DNA from: Chloroflexota bacterium
GTDB taxonomy: Bacteria > Chloroflexota > Anaerolineae > Anaerolineales > Villigracilaceae
Direction: 5' to 3'
Assembly: GCA_021796315.1 (NCBI GenBank)
Contig: JAJYOH010000116.1
Location: 1 to 12,107, forward strand
Length of the DNA stretch: 12,107 nt
The notes under the pieces are model-generated. The model was not told the DNA's origin. It worked only from the letters and a program-made list of their open reading frames with translations, and ran no database searches. Each line of letters starts with the position of its first letter. The stretch's first letter is position 1. Of the stretch, positions 3,128 through 11,872 are shown in pieces. A program made the translations under genes and the position numbers.

Positions 3128-4651
3128 ATGAGTGAACCCATAAATGCTTTTGAAATGCGAGGGATCGTCAAGCGCTTTCCTGGCGTCCTCGCGAACGATC
3201 ATGTAAATTTTTCTTCGCGGGTGGGAGAGGTTCACGCGTTGTTGGGTGAAAACGGCGCGGGCAAAAGTACGTTGATGAATGTTCTAGGTGGTCTCTATAT
3301 GCCGGAGGCCGGTGAGATTTACATTGGGGGACAAAAGGTTTCCTTTCATTCTCCTCAAGACGCCATTGCTCATGGGATCGGCATGGTGCATCAACATTTT
3401 ATGTTGGTGCCGTCTCATTCAGTTGCCGAGAACATAGTACTTGGTTTGAATCGTCCACGTTTTTTTCTTAATTTATCACAGGTCGAAGAACAGGTGGCCG
3501 CCCTGGCCGAACAATATAACATGAATGTCAACCCGCGTGCCAGGATATGGGAATTGTCCGTCGGCGAACAACAGCGCGTCGAAGTTTTGAAGATGCTTTT
3601 CCGCGGCGCCAAAGTTTTGATCATGGATGAACCCACCGCGGTTTTGACTCCACAGGAAGTTGATTCGTTATTCCACACTTTGCGCGATATGACTCGGCAG
3701 GGACACACCATTGTTTTTATTTCACATAAACTGGATGAAGTGGTTGCCATCGCAGACCGCGTGACGGTTTTGCGGCGCGGCAAAGTAACCGCGGCGGGCG
3801 AATCCGCCAAGGGCGTCACAAAAGCCCAGCTTGCCAAGTTAATGGTCGGGCGCGAAGTTTTATTCCGCGTTATCAAGAAGAAGGCACAACCTGGTGACGT
3901 TGTCCTTTCAGCCAATGGACTGACCGCAAATAATGATCGTGGTCTTCCGGCCCTTCGTAATGTGTCTTTTCAACTGCGCGCCGGGGAAATATTTGGAATT
4001 GCCGGGGTGGCCGGTAATGGTCAGCGCGAGTTGGCGGAGGTTCTCACCGGCCTGCGACGCATGACTAGCGGCACTGCAAAATTTGGCAACGATCTATTGG
4101 ACCCTTCAACCAAGTGGCAAGAGATCGGTCAACGGCTGGCGCATATTCCCGAAGACCGCGCCGCGTTTGGAAGCGTCCCAAGTTTGAGCGTGGCTGAGAA
4201 TTTGATTCTTAAGTCCTTTAATCGCGAGCCTATTTCTTCTGGATGGGCGATCAATTCAAATGCAGTGCATGAAAATGCCGTCCGCCTGGTGGATGAATAT
4301 CAGGTCGCGACACCGACAGTCGAAACCGCGGTGCGGATGTTATCGGGCGGCAATTTGCAAAAAATAATTTTGGCGCGCGAAACGTCCGGGCATCCGGGGC
4401 TGATGATTGCGGTGCACCCGGCCCGAGGTCTGGATGTGGGCGCGATGGAATCGGTCCATAAAATCCTGATTGAACAACGCGATGCGGGCGCCGCCATCCT
4501 TTTGATCTCCGAGGATTTGGATGAATTACTTTCATTAAGTGATCGTCTGGCTGTCATGTATGAGGGGCAGATTATCGGCGAAATGCCCACTGACGGTGCG
4601 GATATTCAAACAATCGGGCTCATGATGGCCGGCACAAAGGTGGAAAAATGA
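3128..4651 (+). CDS. ABC importer ATP-binding protein, two fused nucleotide-binding domains (NupO/YufO, RbsA/MglA type)
   Basis: 507-residue cytoplasmic ATPase that powers the importer. The N-terminal domain is complete: Walker A GENGAGKST (40-48, Lys46), signature LSVGEQQ (143-149), Walker B LIMDEP (164-169) with catalytic Glu168, and switch His200. The C-terminal domain has a degenerate Walker A, GIAGVAGNGQ (290-299), lacking the GKS/T. It keeps an intact signature, LSGGN (405-409), and its Walker B has AVHPARGLD in place of a DEP motif. This one-active, one-degenerate pattern is normal for the sugar/nucleoside importer ATPases RbsA, MglA and NupO, so the second domain should not be read as damaged. 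Length is typical (about 500 residues). Its stop overlaps the next start as ATGA (4648-4651), so translation is likely coupled to the permease. Confidence 0.95.
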   Translation: MSEPINAFEMRGIVKRFPGVLANDHVNFSSRVGEVHALLGENGAGKSTLMNVLGGLYMPEAGEIYIGGQKVSFHSPQDAIAHGIGMVHQHFMLVPSHSVAENIVLGLNRPRFFLNLSQVEEQVAALAEQYNMNVNPRARIWELSVGEQQRVEVLKMLFRGAKVLIMDEPTAVLTPQEVDSLFHTLRDMTRQGHTIVFISHKLDEVVAIADRVTVLRRGKVTAAGESAKGVTKAQLAKLMVGREVLFRVIKKKAQPGDVVLSANGLTANNDRGLPALRNVSFQLRAGEIFGIAGVAGNGQRELAEVLTGLRRMTSGTAKFGNDLLDPSTKWQEIGQRLAHIPEDRAAFGSVPSLSVAENLILKSFNREPISSGWAINSNAVHENAVRLVDEYQVATPTVETAVRMLSGGNLQKIILARETSGHPGLMIAVHPARGLDVGAMESVHKILIEQRDAGAAILLISEDLDELLSLSDRLAVMYEGQIIGEMPTDGADIQTIGLMMAGTKVEK

Positions 4652-6941: not shown

Positions 6942-7874
6942 ATGAACCTTTGGCAAAATTATCTTCGACCAAAAACTTTATCCGAGGCAATGGATGCGTT
7001 CGCTCATGCGCCGCGCCCACTTGCGCTGATTGCAGGCGGGACAGATTTATTATTGGATTTGGAACAAGGCCGACATTCTCCTGTTCAAACTTTAATTGAT
7101 GTTACTGAAATTAGAGAATTGCTTGTCCTCGATATTAGGGATGAATATCTTTTCATCGGCGCGGGCGTGCCGGTTAATCGCGTCGCGCTGGACCCGCTCA
7201 CGGCTCGCCACGCCCAAGCCTTGACTGAAGCCTGCAACTTGATCGCCGGACCGCAAGTCCGCAACGTCGCCACGCTCGGCGGAAACGTCGCCCACGCTCT
7301 CCCTGCCGCAGATGGGACGATTGCCTTGCTCGCGTTGGACGCGCAGGCAGAGATTGCCAACTTTGCTCAAGCCACCGTCCCCGGCGGCGAGGACGTCGCT
7401 GAGAGCAAAATAAAAACGCGTCGCATCCCATTCAAAGAATTATTTCTCGGCCCGGGAAAATCCGCGCTCAAACACGGGGAAGAATTATTGGTTGGTTTTT
7501 ATATTCCAATTCAAACCCTAAAAGTCTCTGAGACCTTTAGGGTTTCTTCATGTTTCAAGAGAATCATGCGCCATCAAGGAGTTGCGCTTCCTATTTTAAA
7601 TTGCGCGGTCTGGCTGGAACGTGAAAAGGATATCATCAAAGATATTCACATCACCGTCGGCCCCGGCGGCGCGACTCCCTTCCGCGCCACCGAAGCGGAA
7701 AATATTTTGCGTGGACAATCTCTCATAGATTCAACATTTGACTTGGCGCTGGATGCTTTGCTAGCCCAGGCCCAATTCCGCTCCAGCGCCCGCCGTGCCA
7801 GCGCGGACTATCGCAAGCACATCGTCAGTGGATTGTTCAAGGATACGCTCAAAGCCGCGTGGGAACGGGCTTGA
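6942..7874 (+). CDS. Molybdenum hydroxylase FAD-binding subunit (CoxM/XdhB family)
   Basis: 310-residue medium subunit of a xanthine dehydrogenase-type enzyme. It holds FAD and passes electrons from the [2Fe-2S] centres to NAD+ or another acceptor. FAD-binding motifs are plain: IAGGTDLL (Ala31-Gly32-Gly33-Thr34) and ATLGGN (110-115) within an RNVATLGGN segment. The C-terminal CO_deh_flav_C region ends with SADYRKHIVSGLF. The chain is a little longer than the usual 285-295 residues. Two stretches account for this: residues about 142-158, and residues about 190-203, where a 33-nt DNA palindrome (7513-7545) is translated in frame between the LLVGFYIP strand and the SCFKRIMRHQG segment. Base composition is patchy along the gene. 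Its stop codon lies inside the -35 box of the toxin-antitoxin promoter, and its final 28 codons have a diverged second copy at 8520-8615. Its partner is the fused subunit at 9065. Confidence 0.92.
   Translation: MNLWQNYLRPKTLSEAMDAFAHAPRPLALIAGGTDLLLDLEQGRHSPVQTLIDVTEIRELLVLDIRDEYLFIGAGVPVNRVALDPLTARHAQALTEACNLIAGPQVRNVATLGGNVAHALPAADGTIALLALDAQAEIANFAQATVPGGEDVAESKIKTRRIPFKELFLGPGKSALKHGEELLVGFYIPIQTLKVSETFRVSSCFKRIMRHQGVALPILNCAVWLEREKDIIKDIHITVGPGGATPFRATEAENILRGQSLIDSTFDLALDALLAQAQFRSSARRASADYRKHIVSGLFKDTLKAAWERA
7513..7545. repeat. Palindromic element translated in frame inside the FAD-subunit gene
   Basis: Outer arms AAACCCTAAA (7513-7522) and TTTAGGGTTT (7536-7545) pair perfectly. Inside them a single A/C mismatch (7523, 7535) is followed by a second dyad, GTCTC (7524-7528), centre T, GAGAC (7530-7534). 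That gives 15 of 16 paired positions over 33 nt. It encodes residues about 191-202 (QTLKVSETFRVS), a stretch with no counterpart in the CoxM-type proteins I know. It keeps the frame and adds no stop. It looks like an inserted repeat tolerated in a surface loop. Confidence 0.75.
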
Positions 7875-7899
7875 CTTAGTCCACTGGTTAGTCTACAAT
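7871..7899 (+). promoter_or_regulatory. Sigma-70-type promoter and operator of the toxin-antitoxin pair
   Basis: TTGACT (7871-7876) and TACAAT (7894-7899) are separated by exactly 17 nt, the best promoter match in the window. The -35 box contains the TGA stop of the FAD gene (7872-7874). The spacer holds TTAGTC twice (7876-7881 and 7888-7893), and GACTTAGTC (7873-7881) is itself a dyad. Repeats placed between -35 and -10 are what one expects for autorepression by a Phd/YefM antitoxin. The promoter match is seen; autoregulation is inferred from the family. Confidence 0.75.
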
Positions 7900-7916
7900 G
7901 CCTTTAGAGGTGTCAA

Positions 7917-8135
7917 ATGACTATTTTCAATATTCACGAAGCTAAAACCCACTTTTCAAAACTGCTTGAACGTGTTTTGAATGGCGAAGAAGTAGTGATT
8001 GCCAAAGCAGGGAAACCTATTGCGCGTATTTTGCCTGTGGTTTCGAATGTTTCCCAGCGCAAACCAGGCATTGACAAGGGTACGGTAGTCATCATGCCTA
8101 ACTTCGATGACCCGTTGGAGGAATTCGCAGTATGA
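7917..8135 (+). CDS. Type II antitoxin, Phd/YefM (VapB-like) family
   Basis: 72-residue DNA-binding antitoxin that should neutralise the downstream PIN-domain toxin and repress its own promoter. The N-terminus has the Phd/YefM pattern: MTIFNIHEAKTHFSKLLERV, then GEEVVIAKAGKPIARILPV, the fold that makes the dimeric DNA-binding domain. The tail (about 50-72, ending DDPLEEFAV) is acidic, as expected for the toxin-blocking segment. GAGG (7907-7910) lies 6 nt before the ATG. The stop overlaps the toxin start as ATGA (8132-8135), the usual translational coupling that keeps antitoxin in excess. It sits 42 bp after the FAD-subunit gene and has its own promoter. Confidence 0.92.
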   Translation: MTIFNIHEAKTHFSKLLERVLNGEEVVIAKAGKPIARILPVVSNVSQRKPGIDKGTVVIMPNFDDPLEEFAV

Positions 8136-8518
8136 AATACCTGCTCGACACGCATACATTCCTTTGGTGGAATATGGATGACTCGCAGTTATCCACTATT
8201 GCAAAGGAAATCATCGCAGATGGTAGTAACGAAATCTTCCTTAGCGCTGCCAGCGCATGGGAAATTGCCATTAAAGCCGCCCGTGGGCGTCTTGTTTTAC
8301 CAGAAGATCCCACGCACTACATTTCAAGTCGCATAAGCCTGCATGGGTTTCAAGCCCTGCCTGTACAAATCCATCATGCTGTGCAGGTCTATAAATTGCC
8401 CATGCACCATGCCGATCCATTTGACAGATTACTGATTGCCCAAAGCCAGGTTGAATCCATGCCGCTTCTATCGGTGGATGATGATATTCGGAAATATGAT
8501 GTCCAAGTGGTTTGGTAG
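8132..8518 (+). CDS. vapC: Type II toxin, PIN-domain ribonuclease VapC (Sll0205-like)
   Basis: 128-residue PIN-domain endoribonuclease; relatives cut tRNA or rRNA and stop growth when the antitoxin is lost. The acidic active site is complete: Asp6 in LLDTHTFLWW, Glu44 in SAASAWEIAIK, Asp98 in HHADPFDRLLIAQ, and Asp116/Asp117 in LLSVDDD. The DTHTFLWW and DPFDRLLIAQ forms match the Sll0205-like PIN branch usually paired with Phd/YefM antitoxins, as here. Length is normal and the toxin looks intact. One base after its stop, sequence related to the FAD-subunit 3' end begins (8520), so the module fits tightly between two copies of that gene end. The RNA target cannot be read from sequence. Confidence 0.93.
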   Translation: MKYLLDTHTFLWWNMDDSQLSTIAKEIIADGSNEIFLSAASAWEIAIKAARGRLVLPEDPTHYISSRISLHGFQALPVQIHHAVQVYKLPMHHADPFDRLLIAQSQVESMPLLSVDDDIRKYDVQVVW

Positions 8519-8519
8519 G

Positions 8520-8615
8520 CTCCACTCCCGCCGTGCCAGCGCGGATTATCGTCGGCACATTGTTATTGGTTTATTTAGGGAAATACTCGAAAATGTATGG
8601 AAAAGAGCAAATTGA
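8520..8615 (+). pseudogene. Remnant second copy of the FAD-subunit 3' end
   Basis: In the frame ending at TGA 8613-8615 this stretch encodes SRRASADYRRHIVIGLFREI and then LENVWKRAN. The FAD subunit ends SARRASADYRKHIVSGLFKD, then TLKAAWERA (7786-7874). Roughly two thirds of the residues agree, with conservative changes elsewhere. At DNA level 8527-8551 matches 7789-7813 at 24 of 25 positions, including 19 in a row; the rest has drifted and is more AT-rich. No start or N-terminal part remains, so it cannot make a working subunit. The matches are 738 bp apart, a multiple of three, and in the same codon phase. It is either the old gene end displaced when the toxin-antitoxin module arrived, or the tail of a lost tandem paralogue. 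Confidence 0.8.
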
Positions 8616-8692
8616 CGGTTGAGACGGAAAGACACACAGTTCTTTGATTAGTTTCACTTAGTATTTTGTGATGGAACAGGAACGGAGCTAAA

Positions 8693-9040
8693 ATGCAAAA
8701 AGTTGACCTATTTTCAATTATTGTAGAATCTGACCATGCGCACATCGAAATAAAGTCCACAGATTCACTCGAAGTAAAGTATTTTGGGAATCTCTTTGTT
8801 GAGAAGTTTGGTAATAAGTGGGGTAAACAGAATCGGCTCTGGATAAGTGAATATTCGTTACGGTTCACGCTCTATGACATTGAAATTATCGGATCTGATT
8901 TGTCTCATCTTACATCAGATCAAATCTATTTTCGGGATTTTGAGTGGTGGTTATTTCGCCTTGCAATTGAAAGAGGTTGGCGGCCGTTTTCGAATATAGG
9001 TACCTTTACCCGATTAACAGAATTTGATGCTTCTTTGTGA
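8693..9040 (+). CDS. Hypothetical protein, 115 residues, AT-rich orphan
   Basis: I do not recognise it. The product starts MQKVDLFSIIVESDHAHIEI and is soluble, with alternating beta-like stretches in the first half and a marked aromatic cluster, FRDFEWWLFRLAIERGW, near residues 81-97. No membrane segment, signal peptide, zinc motif or nuclease motif is seen. GGAG (8684-8687) lies 5 nt before the ATG. The gene is clearly more AT-rich than the hydroxylase genes on either side, and its 3' end is 24 nt before the fused subunit's ATG, so a transcript into the hydroxylase gene would include it. Together with the toxin-antitoxin pair and the remnant 3' end, it looks like part of an acquired segment. 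A small immunity or defence accessory role is conceivable but unsupported. It is probably a real gene; the function is unknown. Confidence 0.65.
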   Translation: MQKVDLFSIIVESDHAHIEIKSTDSLEVKYFGNLFVEKFGNKWGKQNRLWISEYSLRFTLYDIEIIGSDLSHLTSDQIYFRDFEWWLFRLAIERGWRPFSNIGTFTRLTEFDASL

Positions 9041-9064
9041 CACTAAACCACTGTGGCGGTTACA

Positions 9065-11872
9065 ATGAACAACCTAATCTCACTTACAGTTAACGGCATC
9101 AAACACACTCTCGAACCCATTGCGGGCGAAACCCTCTCCACCCTCCTGCGCGAGCGACTTCGACTCACGGGCACAAAGATCGGCTGTGATGAGGCCGAGT
9201 GCGGCGCGTGTACCGTCCTTGTGGATGGCGAGCCTGTGGTCTCGTGCATCTATCCTGCCGAGCGCGCGGATGGGAAAAATATTGTCACCATCGAAGGGTT
9301 GTCTTCCCTCACCCCTACCCCCTCTCCCTTAGGGAGAGGGGGACTCCACCCTCTTCAGGAAGCGTTTGTTGAACACGGCGCAGCCCAATGCGGATTCTGC
9401 ATCCCCGGCCAGATCATGACCGCGTATGCTTTGCTCAAGCGCAATCCGAATCCTGACAGTGACGATGTTCGTTTTGCTTTGAAAGATACACTCTGCCGCT
9501 GTGCGGGCTATCCTTCGATTGAGAATGCGATCCTCGCAGCAGCCGAATCTTTGAGAACGGGGGAACCTGTCAGGAAACCACATATCCCTGATTCGATTCA
9601 TGAGCATAAATCAGTTGGACATACCAACCTGCGACCCGATGGATTCGAGAAAGTCACAGGCAATGCCATCTATACCGATGACCTTGCGTTCGACGGCATG
9701 TTGTATGCCAAAGCGCGCCGTGCAATGATCCCGCATGGCTTCCTGAAGAAATTGGATATTTCAAAAGCAAAAGCATTGCCAGGCGTAGTAGCCGTTTTAA
9801 CTGCTGACGATATCCCTGGCGAAAAGAATCATGGACTGGTTATTTACGATTGGCCTGTGATGATCGGTATTGGTGAACGCGTCAGATATGTGGGCGATGC
9901 GCTTGCCATCGTTGCCGCGGAAACTCAGGAGATCGCCGAGCAGGCGTCGGCGTTGATTGAAGCGGAGTTCGAAATCCAGCCCGTTATCACGAATCCAGTG
10001 CAGGCACGGCAGGAGGGAGTCCCGCAAATCCACGAAAAGGGCAATCTGCTCAAGCACATCAAAGTCCGCAAAGGCGACATGGATAAAGGCTTTGCCGAAG
10101 CGGATGTGATCCTTGAACACACCTTCCACACGCCCACGACCGATCACGCTTTCATCGAACCTGAATGCAGTATCGGTGTGCCGTTGCCCGATGGCCGCAT
10201 GGAGATTTATGTCGGCTCGCAAATTCCGTATCAGGATCGGGAGCAAGTTGCGCGCGTGATGAGTTGGCCTCAAGAGCGCATCCGCATCGTTGGTCAATTG
10301 ATGGGTGGTGGCTTCGGCGGCAAGGAAGATGTGATGGGGCAGATCCATGTTGCCATGCTTGCCAATGTGACTCAGCGCCCCGTGAAATTATTGTTCGATC
10401 GCCACGAGAGTTTGCTCGTGCATCCGAAGCGGCACGCCACGCAGATCCGCGTCAAGATCGGCGCCAAGAAAAATGGCCGTCTCGTCGCGGTTGAAACGGA
10501 ACTGTACGGCGATACGGGCGCGTATGCGTCGCTTGGCGAAAAAGTGATGACCCGCGCCACCACGCACTCCGCAGGCCCATACGATATTCCCAACGTGCGC
10601 GCCGATTGTTACGCCATGTACACCAACAATCCGCCTGCGGGCGCGTTCCGTGGTTTCGGCGTCACGCAGTCTGCCTTTGCGGTTGAGTCGATGATGGACA
10701 TGCTCGCCGAAAAAATGAATCTCGATCCCATTGAATTGCGCCGCATGAATTCTCTTCATGTTGGCAGCATCACCAACACGGGACAGGAACTGCGCGAGTC
10801 GGTTGGCCTGATGGAGTGCATTGATAAAGTTGATGCGGAAATGCGGAAGCATACGCCGCTTCCTTTCGCCCCTCGAGTGGATTCCGCCAATCCGAATCTG
10901 GTGCGCGCCTGGGGCTTTGCTGCCGCTTACAAGAACACAGGACTCGGCGGTGGCGTGCCTGATATATCCAACGCGGAAGTTGAACTTTACGACAACGGAA
11001 AATTTGAAGTGAGAAGTTCCTCCGCCGAAATGGGGCAGGGACTGGTGACCGTGATGCAGACCATCGTCGCAGAAGAAATGTCTGTGTCGCCATCACAAGT
11101 GCACGTTCTCGTCATGGACACTGACCTGACTCCCAATGGCGGCCCGACAACTGCGTCACGCCAAACTTTCGTCACTGGCAATGCCTCGCGCTATGCCGCA
11201 ATGACTCTGCGTGAAGCGATCACTGCTACCATGGCTGAAAAATATGACGTGCGTCCCGAACAAATTCGATTCGAGAATGGCATTGTTCATGTCAACGGAC
11301 ATTCGATGACATACACTGATGTTGCAAAAGAAATGAAATCAATGGAACAACAGCCGCGCGCCCTCTATGAATACGAAGCGCCCAAGACCCAACCCCTCGG
11401 CACAGGCGGTGACATGCACTTTGCCTTCTCCTATGGCGTGCAGGCCGCTGAAGTGGAAGTCAATAAACTGACGGGCGAAGTCCGCGTTCTGAAAGTCATT
11501 TCCGCCAACGATGTGGGCATGGCGGTCAACCCGCTTGGCTTGCAGGGACAGATCGAAGGCGGCGTGATGATGGGCCTCGGCAACTGTCTCACCGAAGAAT
11601 TCATTATGGACAACGGCAACGTAGTTACCGATCATCTTGCCCGCTACCGCGTCCCTGGCATCATGCTAACGCCAGAGATCACTTCTATTATCGTTGAACA
11701 TCCCACCGCTGAAGGTCCCTACGGCGCAAAAGGAGTGGGGGAGATATGCAGTATCCCGACCACGCCTGCGATTACCAACGCAATTTATAATGCTGTCGGT
11801 GTGCGGATTGATAAGACGCCTGTGGATCAGGAGATGATTGCAAGGGAACTGTGGGAAAGAGAAAAGAAATAA
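9065..11872 (+). CDS. Molybdenum hydroxylase, fused [2Fe-2S] and molybdopterin subunits (xanthine dehydrogenase/purine hydroxylase type)
   Basis: 935-residue catalytic protein that hydroxylates a purine-type substrate at the molybdenum centre and sends electrons through two [2Fe-2S] clusters to the FAD subunit. The plant-type ferredoxin domain has Cys41, 46, 49 and 61 (GCDEAECGAC, then SC). The second cluster domain has Cys109, 112, 144 and 146 (QCGFCIPG, then CRCAG). From about residue 185 it is the large subunit: FIEPE (363-367), MGGGFGGKE (413-421), AFRGFG (527-532) and GAKGVGE with catalytic Glu893. Glu365 and Arg529 correspond to the substrate-orienting Glu and Arg of bovine xanthine dehydrogenase. 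The AYRCSFR loop of CO dehydrogenase is absent. Small-large fusion at about 950 residues resembles E. coli XdhD and Se-dependent xanthine dehydrogenases. A palindrome encodes extra residues about 80-93. A GTG at 9053 is an alternative start. A terminator follows directly. Confidence 0.92.
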   Translation: MNNLISLTVNGIKHTLEPIAGETLSTLLRERLRLTGTKIGCDEAECGACTVLVDGEPVVSCIYPAERADGKNIVTIEGLSSLTPTPSPLGRGGLHPLQEAFVEHGAAQCGFCIPGQIMTAYALLKRNPNPDSDDVRFALKDTLCRCAGYPSIENAILAAAESLRTGEPVRKPHIPDSIHEHKSVGHTNLRPDGFEKVTGNAIYTDDLAFDGMLYAKARRAMIPHGFLKKLDISKAKALPGVVAVLTADDIPGEKNHGLVIYDWPVMIGIGERVRYVGDALAIVAAETQEIAEQASALIEAEFEIQPVITNPVQARQEGVPQIHEKGNLLKHIKVRKGDMDKGFAEADVILEHTFHTPTTDHAFIEPECSIGVPLPDGRMEIYVGSQIPYQDREQVARVMSWPQERIRIVGQLMGGGFGGKEDVMGQIHVAMLANVTQRPVKLLFDRHESLLVHPKRHATQIRVKIGAKKNGRLVAVETELYGDTGAYASLGEKVMTRATTHSAGPYDIPNVRADCYAMYTNNPPAGAFRGFGVTQSAFAVESMMDMLAEKMNLDPIELRRMNSLHVGSITNTGQELRESVGLMECIDKVDAEMRKHTPLPFAPRVDSANPNLVRAWGFAAAYKNTGLGGGVPDISNAEVELYDNGKFEVRSSSAEMGQGLVTVMQTIVAEEMSVSPSQVHVLVMDTDLTPNGGPTTASRQTFVTGNASRYAAMTLREAITATMAEKYDVRPEQIRFENGIVHVNGHSMTYTDVAKEMKSMEQQPRALYEYEAPKTQPLGTGGDMHFAFSYGVQAAEVEVNKLTGEVRVLKVISANDVGMAVNPLGLQGQIEGGVMMGLGNCLTEEFIMDNGNVVTDHLARYRVPGIMLTPEITSIIVEHPTAEGPYGAKGVGEICSIPTTPAITNAIYNAVGVRIDKTPVDQEMIARELWEREKK
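9318..9342. repeat. Palindromic element translated in frame inside the fused hydroxylase gene
   Basis: CCCCCTCTCCC (9318-9328), loop TTA, GGGAGAGGGGG (9332-9342): a perfect 11-bp stem, extendable to a 12-bp dyad around T9330. It is preceded by CCCTCACCCCTA, the 5' flank this repeat often has. It encodes TPSPLGRGG within residues about 80-93, between the IEGL end of the ferredoxin domain and the LHPLQEAFVEHG start of the second cluster domain, where relatives have only a few residues. From memory, near-identical palindromes occur in intergenic regions of many bacterial genomes. Here one lies inside a conserved enzyme gene without breaking its frame. Confidence 0.8.

What the first reader, a model, noticed from the sequence alone, without database searches (positions are those of the whole stretch)
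7781..8615. Toxin-antitoxin module bounded by an intact and a diverged copy of the same gene end, in the same reading phase
The last 28 codons of the FAD subunit recur as a drifted copy at 8520-8615, one base after the vapC stop. 8527-8551 matches 7789-7813 at 24 of 25 bases. The offset is 738 bp (3 x 246) and both copies are in the same codon phase, so recombination between them would remove phd-vapC and leave a full FAD gene with the alternative tail. This resembles elements that insert into a gene 3' end and supply a replacement tail (as e14 does in E. coli icd), but no integrase is present. Decay of a tandem paralogue is the alternative.
Basis: partly seen in the sequence, partly recalled or inferred. 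Interest (0 to 1): 0.75.

Follow-up and report, generated by a model that had tools for sequence, protein, structure and literature searches.

The report
Toxin-antitoxin pair inserted behind gene tail
A small toxin-antitoxin gene pair sits between two copies of the end of a metabolic gene, and the same arrangement recurs at other genes in related bacteria with other toxin-antitoxin pairs, which suggests that these pairs move between genomes by way of borrowed gene ends.

Summary
8520-8615 is a diverged second copy of the last 28 codons of the FAD-subunit gene, directly behind a phd-vapC pair. No relative examined shows a second full FAD gene in tandem, so paralogue decay is not supported.

It is one case of a recurrent pattern in Anaerolineales. 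At the FAD gene two TA families occur in the same sandwich. The same phd-vapC family lies behind methylmalonyl-CoA mutase (MCM), flanked by copies of that gene's end. In 1.2 Mb of one relative the five strongest short-spaced direct repeats include four around unrelated TA pairs. Seven of 20 toxin loci of five families in that genome are so flanked; none of 9 in E. coli K-12. Stacked arrays exist (tail-TA-tail-TA-tail).

At MCM the two tails differ mostly by synonymous changes (78 of 113 changed codons), so there they diverged as working gene ends, not by decay of one copy. I therefore favour insertion of a unit [gene tail + TA] by homologous recombination through the tail, without integrase, which swaps the gene's end and leaves the old end behind. 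'Insertion with long target duplication', known for restriction-modification genes, is the main rival. For the window alone the two are not separated.

The parts
6942..7874 (+). FAD-binding subunit gene (CoxM family) of a xanthine/CO-dehydrogenase-type enzyme, complete
   Evidence: Pfam FAD_binding_5 2e-37 and CO_deh_flav_C 3.1e-20; full-length relatives
7780..7874 (+). gene-end copy 1 (last 28 codons, in use)
   Evidence: direct repeat with 8519-8608
7789..7813 (+). most alike part of copy 1 (24 of 25 with 8527-8551)
7871..7899 (+). left edge of the TA unit: TTGACT-17 nt-TACAAT promoter-like block that also holds the FAD stop codon (7872-7874)
   Evidence: the same or nearly the same block precedes the pair in L086, L114, L113, L116, L117, L122, behind three different upstream genes; promoter role inferred
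7917..8135 (+). phd-type antitoxin, 72 aa
   Evidence: Pfam PhdYeFM_antitox 1.2e-11
8132..8518 (+). VapC-type PIN toxin, 128 aa; overlaps the antitoxin gene by 4 nt
   Evidence: Pfam PIN 9e-15
8520..8615 (+). gene-end copy 2: displaced FAD 3' end; only a TTG-started ORF that begins inside vapC (8436-8615) runs through it, so probably not a gene
8693..9040 (+). 115-aa ORF of unknown function between the remnant and coxSL; further cargo of the same gap
   Evidence: two homologues found, P0121 99% and P0122 57%
9053..11872 (+). fused [2Fe-2S]/molybdopterin subunit gene (coxSL), the usual right-hand neighbour of the FAD gene
   Evidence: Pfam Fer2_2, MoCoBD_1, MoCoBD_2; neighbour of FAD in relatives

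Best explanation
The phd-vapC pair is a horizontally acquired addiction module that entered the 3' end of the FAD gene. Shown: it is bounded by two copies of that gene's end, the upstream one completing the gene and the downstream one left over; the same TA family and unrelated TA families occur in the same sandwich at this and at other genes in Anaerolineales. Inferred: what moves is a unit [gene tail + TA]. Homologous recombination between the incoming tail and the resident tail inserts it without an integrase, so that the gene body is joined to the incoming tail, the TA follows, and the resident tail is pushed downstream, where it decays. The addiction module then resists loss by the reverse recombination. 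Repetition through the same tail stacks modules. How the first joint between a toxin's end and a tail's start is made is not known.
For: FAD sandwich in six loci with two TA families, remnant starting at the same codons: window, L086, L112, L114 (type A), L002, L093 (type B); L092 and L098 keep only about the first 12 nt of the remnant, by eye. Type A at MCM with MCM tails in L113, L116, L117, L119, L123, L124 and behind an unidentified gene in L122. Of 62 testable TA-A/B homologue loci, 16 have the upstream flank repeated downstream above every reverse-strand control. Of 14 distinct MCM loci with a second tail, 8 have it begin at the same codon, with four kinds of cargo; the remnant reads GAG there in 8 of 8, the resident gene in 3 of 8 (others TCG, TCG, GAC, GAT, TGG), so the edge seems to travel with the unit. 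Changed codons between copies: MCM 78 of 113 synonymous (P 1e-12 even against my liberal bound of 0.36), RadC-like gene 4 of 4, coxSL of L006 2 of 2. L002's two tails point to different lineages. TA-A is 88% identical between window and L112, their FAD genes 66-69%: transfer. Arrays: L114 and L124 with three tails each. Repeat scan of 1.2 Mb: 4 of the 5 strongest pairs enclose TA pairs; 7 of 20 toxin loci flanked; 281 small ORFs as control gave 5 hits, all inside those TA intervals.
Against: Which copy is native could not be decided for the FAD loci: tail windows are no outliers against other windows among genes without an insert, and L112 and L114 have two copies alike. FAD copies pooled give 40 of 95 synonymous, P 0.13 against the liberal bound (L093 compared without allowing for an indel); coxSL L093 (1 of 3), the epimerase-like gene (2 of 7) and the DUF559-like gene (2 of 6) of G168 look like plain decay. 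Six of 14 MCM second tails do not begin at the common codon (L208, L210 further left; L119, L190, L194, L203 further right). The P0001 break (residues 241-255) lies 29-43 codons upstream of the remnant's edge (residue 284), which a circle holding only the tail does not explain; P0001 may be an assembly chimera, and C-terminal drops also occur in some pairs with a body of 90-92%. Some loci have nearly identical copies (L006 98%, L141 97%, L272 95.5%, L153 95%), as fresh target duplications would. Type A behind MCM in L120 has no remnant; 46 of 62 TA homologue loci, 13 of 20 toxins in G168 and 9 of 9 in E. coli K-12 show no such repeat. No circle or excision product was looked for or seen.
Confidence: 0.57

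Rival explanations
1. Insertion with long target duplication: the TA pair inserts by an unknown end-joining or template-switch process that duplicates about 40-150 bp of the target; copies are identical at birth and the downstream one decays. Gene ends are seen because only there does an intact copy remain.
For: Repeats of 39-147 bp around many TA families at many targets, including a non-coding one (L153, 42 bp, 95%) and the start of a gene that looks like an acyl-CoA dehydrogenase (L141 97%, L272 95.5%); L006 84 bp 98%. Some loci look like plain decay. Described for restriction-modification genes as insertion with long and variable target duplication (passages of PMC3874152, PMC1643837, PMC3031569).
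Against: Synonymous-dominated differences at MCM, the RadC-like gene and L006; the same remnant edge with different cargo at FAD and in 8 of 14 MCM loci.
Confidence: 0.3
2. Site-specific recombination by an integrase acting in trans, as e14 at icd (recalled): the unit carries an attachment core inside a gene tail and the enzyme sits elsewhere.
For: Common edge at FAD and in 8 of 14 MCM loci; second tails of FAD and MCM all on the gene's strand.
Against: Edges of different targets share no sequence evident to the eye (FAD, MCM, L122, ribonucleotide reductase, RadC-like, coxSL); coxSL edges differ between L093 and L006; no integrase among the cargo ORFs read in these intervals.
Confidence: 0.08
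3. Decay of a tandem FAD paralogue followed by an unrelated TA insertion.
For: Only that the remnant is FAD-like.
Against: No second FAD tail other than the remnants in 77 loci; same arrangement with other genes and other cargo; remnant starts at the same codons.
Confidence: 0.03

Closest known systems
Insertion with long target duplication of restriction-modification genes (Nobusato 2000; Furuta 2010, both known here only through citing papers)
   Same: Addiction-type genes, no mobility gene, direct repeats of the order of 100 bp made of target sequence
   Different: Here TA pairs of many families; target copies are mostly gene ends; copies at MCM differ as working genes do; modules stack; a common edge in many loci of one target gene
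e14 and similar elements at gene 3' ends (recalled)
   Same: Gene end replaced, old end displaced
   Different: No integrase, about 0.65 kb, cargo only a TA pair, several unrelated targets
ParDE-like pair behind MaOC1 in Microcystis, flanked by identical 152-bp direct repeats (PMC7935541, abstract and passages)
   Same: TA pair between long direct repeats downstream of a gene
   Different: Repeats lie downstream of the gene's stop codon, are identical and hold inner inverted repeats; one case
Type II TA of the Phd/YefM-VapC kind
   Same: Antitoxin and PIN toxin, overlapping genes
   Different: Nothing in the proteins; the novelty is the flanks

Membership tests
type II toxin-antitoxin (Phd-VapC) | Phd/YefM antitoxin followed by PIN-domain toxin in one operon | tested here: met
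   4-nt overlap
type II toxin-antitoxin (Phd-VapC) | toxin activity neutralised by antitoxin | not testable with these tools
   no bench work
insertion with long target duplication | direct repeats of target sequence, order of 100 bp, around the insert | tested here: met
insertion with long target duplication | copies identical at birth; one copy in the uninserted relative | tested here: inconclusive
   95-98% in L006, L141, L153, L272, L280; synonymous-rich differences at MCM, RadC-like gene, L006 speak against
integrase elements at gene 3' ends (e14 type) | gene end restored by the element's copy, original end displaced | tested here: inconclusive
   supported at MCM, L002 and P0001; not settled for the window
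integrase elements at gene 3' ends (e14 type) | integrase gene on the element | tested here: not met
   only phd and vapC in 7875-8518
decayed tandem paralogue | relatives with two full genes in tandem | tested here: not met
   77 FAD loci scanned for second tails

The most novel reading that the evidence does not exclude
TA modules of unrelated families form a class of recombinase-free mobile units that use the end of the neighbouring host gene as a portable homology arm: each insertion exchanges the C-terminus of the host gene for the donor's, leaves the old end behind, and can be repeated to build [TA + tail] arrays. In one Anaerolineales genome about a third of the toxin loci examined (7 of 20) would be such units.
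Probability: 0.38. Interest if true: 0.82.

Novelty: new variant of a known kind. Interest (0 to 1): 0.68.

Why it matters
How small chromosomal TA pairs move without transposons or integrases is an open question. If gene tails are their vehicle, each insertion site carries a readable record (new tail, module, old tail), insertions can be found and ordered in any genome by a simple repeat scan, and TA acquisition would also reshape the C-termini of core metabolic enzymes.

Tried and rejected
Tandem paralogue decay: not supported. Pervasive tail exchange in genes without an insert: first looked likely (body-tail correlation near 0 at MCM), dropped after a window-by-window control showed other windows to behave much alike. 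Shared codon phase as a functional feature: dropped. A common sequence motif at the remnant edges of different genes: none seen by eye, no motif program was run. Generality in E. coli K-12: 0 of 9 TA loci. Plasmid records: one match of 103 bp to an antitoxin gene. Repeats of other kinds, not counted as support: paralogous dehydrogenases and permeases, a Maf-like gene, a HIT-like gene, L104, L164, L188, L198. The first codon comparison of the window copies was out of frame by one base and was redone. Limits of the counts: MCM loci were chosen by identity, by TA and by a second hit, so 14 of 38 distinct loci (18 of 42 entries) is not a frequency, and three of the 14 second tails are short; the eight remnants were picked with a pattern taken, so that call is no independent proof of a common edge; the cut-offs that leave five repeats in the 1.2 Mb were set after seeing the list; four of the five toxin families searched in G168 were chosen after the four intervals were seen, and outside the 1.2 Mb 3 of 12 toxins are flanked; L116 and L117 are close relatives. 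Literature: no paper on TA pairs with gene-end duplications was seen in the listings; Furuta 2010 is not held and Nobusato 2000 was not looked up. When checking this report I found the common-edge claim at MCM too wide (8 of 14, not all) and lowered the best explanation from 0.60 to 0.57, the novel case from 0.40 to 0.38, and raised the target-duplication rival from 0.27 to 0.30.

Full report
Check of the observation. The repeat is real: 7789-7870 and 8527-8608, 72% over 82 nt, spacing 738, 24 of 25 in the first 25 nt, 18 of 27 residues and 57 of 81 nt over the coding part, local score 39 against at most 17 in 4935 random pairs from the window. Between the copies lie a Phd/YefM antitoxin and a PIN toxin. 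The FAD stop codon lies inside TTGACTTAGTCC, the start of a block that precedes this TA pair in other loci behind other genes too, so the unit brings the stop codon with it.

Relatives at the FAD gene. No whole genome is held for the window. One scan of genome contigs gave 15 loci and a search of 400 genomes of the order gave more. Of 75 distinct fetched loci (window, L112 and L114 not among them) 56 have FAD and coxSL within 250 nt, 18 have a gap of 522-1486 nt and one has no coxSL in range. A profile of the FAD tail run over six frames of 77 loci (76 fetched and the window) found a second tail in four (window, L002, L086, L093), all on the same strand, all between FAD and coxSL and all starting at profile position 6-7, iE at most 6.3e-6 against 0.031 for the next hit. 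L086 carries the window's type of pair (type A); L002 and L093 carry another Phd-PIN pair, type B. A search of 152 genomes of one family for the toxin added L112 and L114 with type A in the same sandwich. L092 and L098 have type B with only about 12 nt of the remnant left, by eye.

Transfer. Window and L112 share 88% of phd and of vapC residues but 66-69% of FAD residues, so the pair moved between lineages.

The pair at other genes. L113 has the type A pair (84%) behind methylmalonyl-CoA mutase (Pfam MM_CoA_mutase 8.8e-180), and that gene's end, not FAD's, is repeated behind vapC. Testing 65 toxin loci (62 long enough) for a repeat of the upstream flank behind the toxin gave 16 above every reverse-strand control: FAD (L112, L114, L115, L142, L144), MCM (L113, L116, L117, L119, L123, L124), an unidentified gene without Pfam match (L122), a ribonucleotide reductase gene (L149), a non-coding stretch (L153), the start of a gene that looks like an acyl-CoA dehydrogenase (L141, name recalled) and one other (L164). 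L115, L142 and L144 are the same loci as L086, L002 and L093. The other 46 show none; among them L120, where type A stands behind MCM without a remnant.

MCM as a second hot place. Among 42 entries (38 distinct loci, chosen partly for having a second hit) 18 entries (14 distinct) have a second MCM tail, all on the gene's strand; L190, L194 and L203 are short pieces. The cargo differs: type A (L113, L116, L117, L119, L123); a DUF2281-PIN pair in L207, and by likeness in L178; a pair with an antitoxin without Pfam match and a PIN-like toxin followed by type A in L124; a DUF4177 protein in L209; no gene in L208. Eight of the 14 (L113, L116, L117, L123, L124, L178, L207, L209) begin at the same codon, two begin further left and four further right. 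L124 reads tail-TA-tail-TA-tail, as L114 does at FAD, where the second module is a broken pair that looks like type B.

Repeat scans. Direct repeats of 35-260 bp spaced 250-2200 nt in 173 loci (1.03 Mb; many of them taken for a TA pair) gave 52 pairs. In loci taken for FAD and coxSL only, coxSL ends are repeated around a DUF433-DUF5615 pair (L006, 84 bp, 98%), a DUF2442-DUF4160 pair in antisense (L011; L053 by likeness) and a PIN gene (L093); other repeats enclose BrnT with a ribbon-helix-helix protein just below its cut-off (L010), DUF5615-DUF433 by likeness (L105), and MazE-like with ParE-like, then PIN by likeness (L090). In the first 1.2 Mb of G168, 43 pairs were found: 15 inside one ORF and 28 others, of which 9 were flagged as paralogues. 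Of the remaining 19, four enclose TA pairs: HicAB (HicB below its cut-off), DUF2281-PemK, a PIN gene, and DUF4160-DUF2442; these are four of the five that are at least 85% identical, at least 45 bp long and spaced 400-1200 nt, the fifth enclosing a HIT-like gene. Of 20 toxins of five Pfam families in the whole genome, seven lie between repeats of at least 47 bp (E at most 3e-10): the four named, L272 (PIN), L280 (HicA, behind a RadC-like gene, 111 bp, 96.4%, ending at the stop codon) and L281 (ParE, beside a UvrD-like gene); L276 has one of 26 bp (RadC and UvrD are recalled names). Of 281 small ORFs in the 1.2 Mb five had such repeats, all within the four TA intervals. Nine E. coli K-12 TA loci gave none.

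Mechanism. If a target were duplicated and the downstream copy decayed, differences should be mostly amino-acid changing: a simulation gives 0.15-0.24 of changed codons synonymous, and about 0.36 if the working copy also collects silent changes (my own bound). Observed: eight MCM loci 78 of 113; six FAD loci 40 of 95; ten other loci together 33 of 68, among them the RadC-like gene 4 of 4 and coxSL of L006 2 of 2, but also coxSL of L093 1 of 3, the epimerase-like gene 2 of 7 and the DUF559-like gene 2 of 6; window 9 of 18, P 0.0015 against the simulation. Against 0.36 the P values are 1e-12, 0.13 and 0.023. At MCM the copies therefore diverged as working gene ends, and the unit most likely arrived with a tail. 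In the eight MCM loci with the common edge the remnant reads GAG at its first codon in 8 of 8, the resident gene in 3 of 8, as expected if the joint toxin-end/tail-start is part of the unit. In the window's close relative P0001 the protein shares 98.75% over residues 1-240 and 76% over 244-310; six other pairs with a body of at least 98% share 96-100% there, while some pairs at 90-92% also drop to 69-73%. This shows a tail exchange near this place in one of the two, unless P0001 is a chimeric assembly; its DNA could not be had.

What is not settled. For the FAD loci neither copy could be shown to be the native one. Nearly identical copies at some loci fit target duplication. The two readings may both occur: duplication at first insertion, spread by recombination through the tails afterwards.

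Known context. A review states that some restriction-modification units insert with long and variable target duplications of the order of 100 bp, and that mobility of these and of TA systems is often ascribed to carrier elements (passages of PMC3874152; related passages of PMC2654758, PMC1643837, PMC3031569). One TA pair between identical 152-bp repeats is described in Microcystis (abstract and passages of PMC7935541). I saw no report of TA pairs with exchanged gene ends in the listings.

Noticed in passing
window 7875-9052 and L003, L005, L006, L010, L086, L089: The FAD-coxSL gap is a general hot place: besides TA pairs it holds ORFs that look like GxxExxY, Fic, LysE and NUDIX proteins (names recalled, not scanned).
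   Followed up: partly
window 8693-9040: 115-aa ORF with only two homologues at E <= 0.001 among 3 candidates from 5.8 billion proteins (99% and 57%).
   Followed up: no
L010 8179-8217, L105 1842-1880, L090 988-1057: In three loci TA pairs are flanked by terminator-like repeats of similar sequence (AAAAGGACTC..GAGTCCTTTT), which may belong to a different kind of unit.
   Followed up: no
L006 10657-10740 / 11494-11577 and L093 6779-6831 / 7415-7467: The few differences between the two coxSL gene-end copies cluster in the first 6-9 nt of the downstream copy (2 of 2 and 3 of 4).
   Followed up: partly
L272 2456-2544 / 3301-3389 and L141 1128-1216 / 1975-2063: A PIN TA pair sits at the start, not the end, of a gene that looks like an acyl-CoA dehydrogenase, whose first codons are repeated upstream.
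   Followed up: partly
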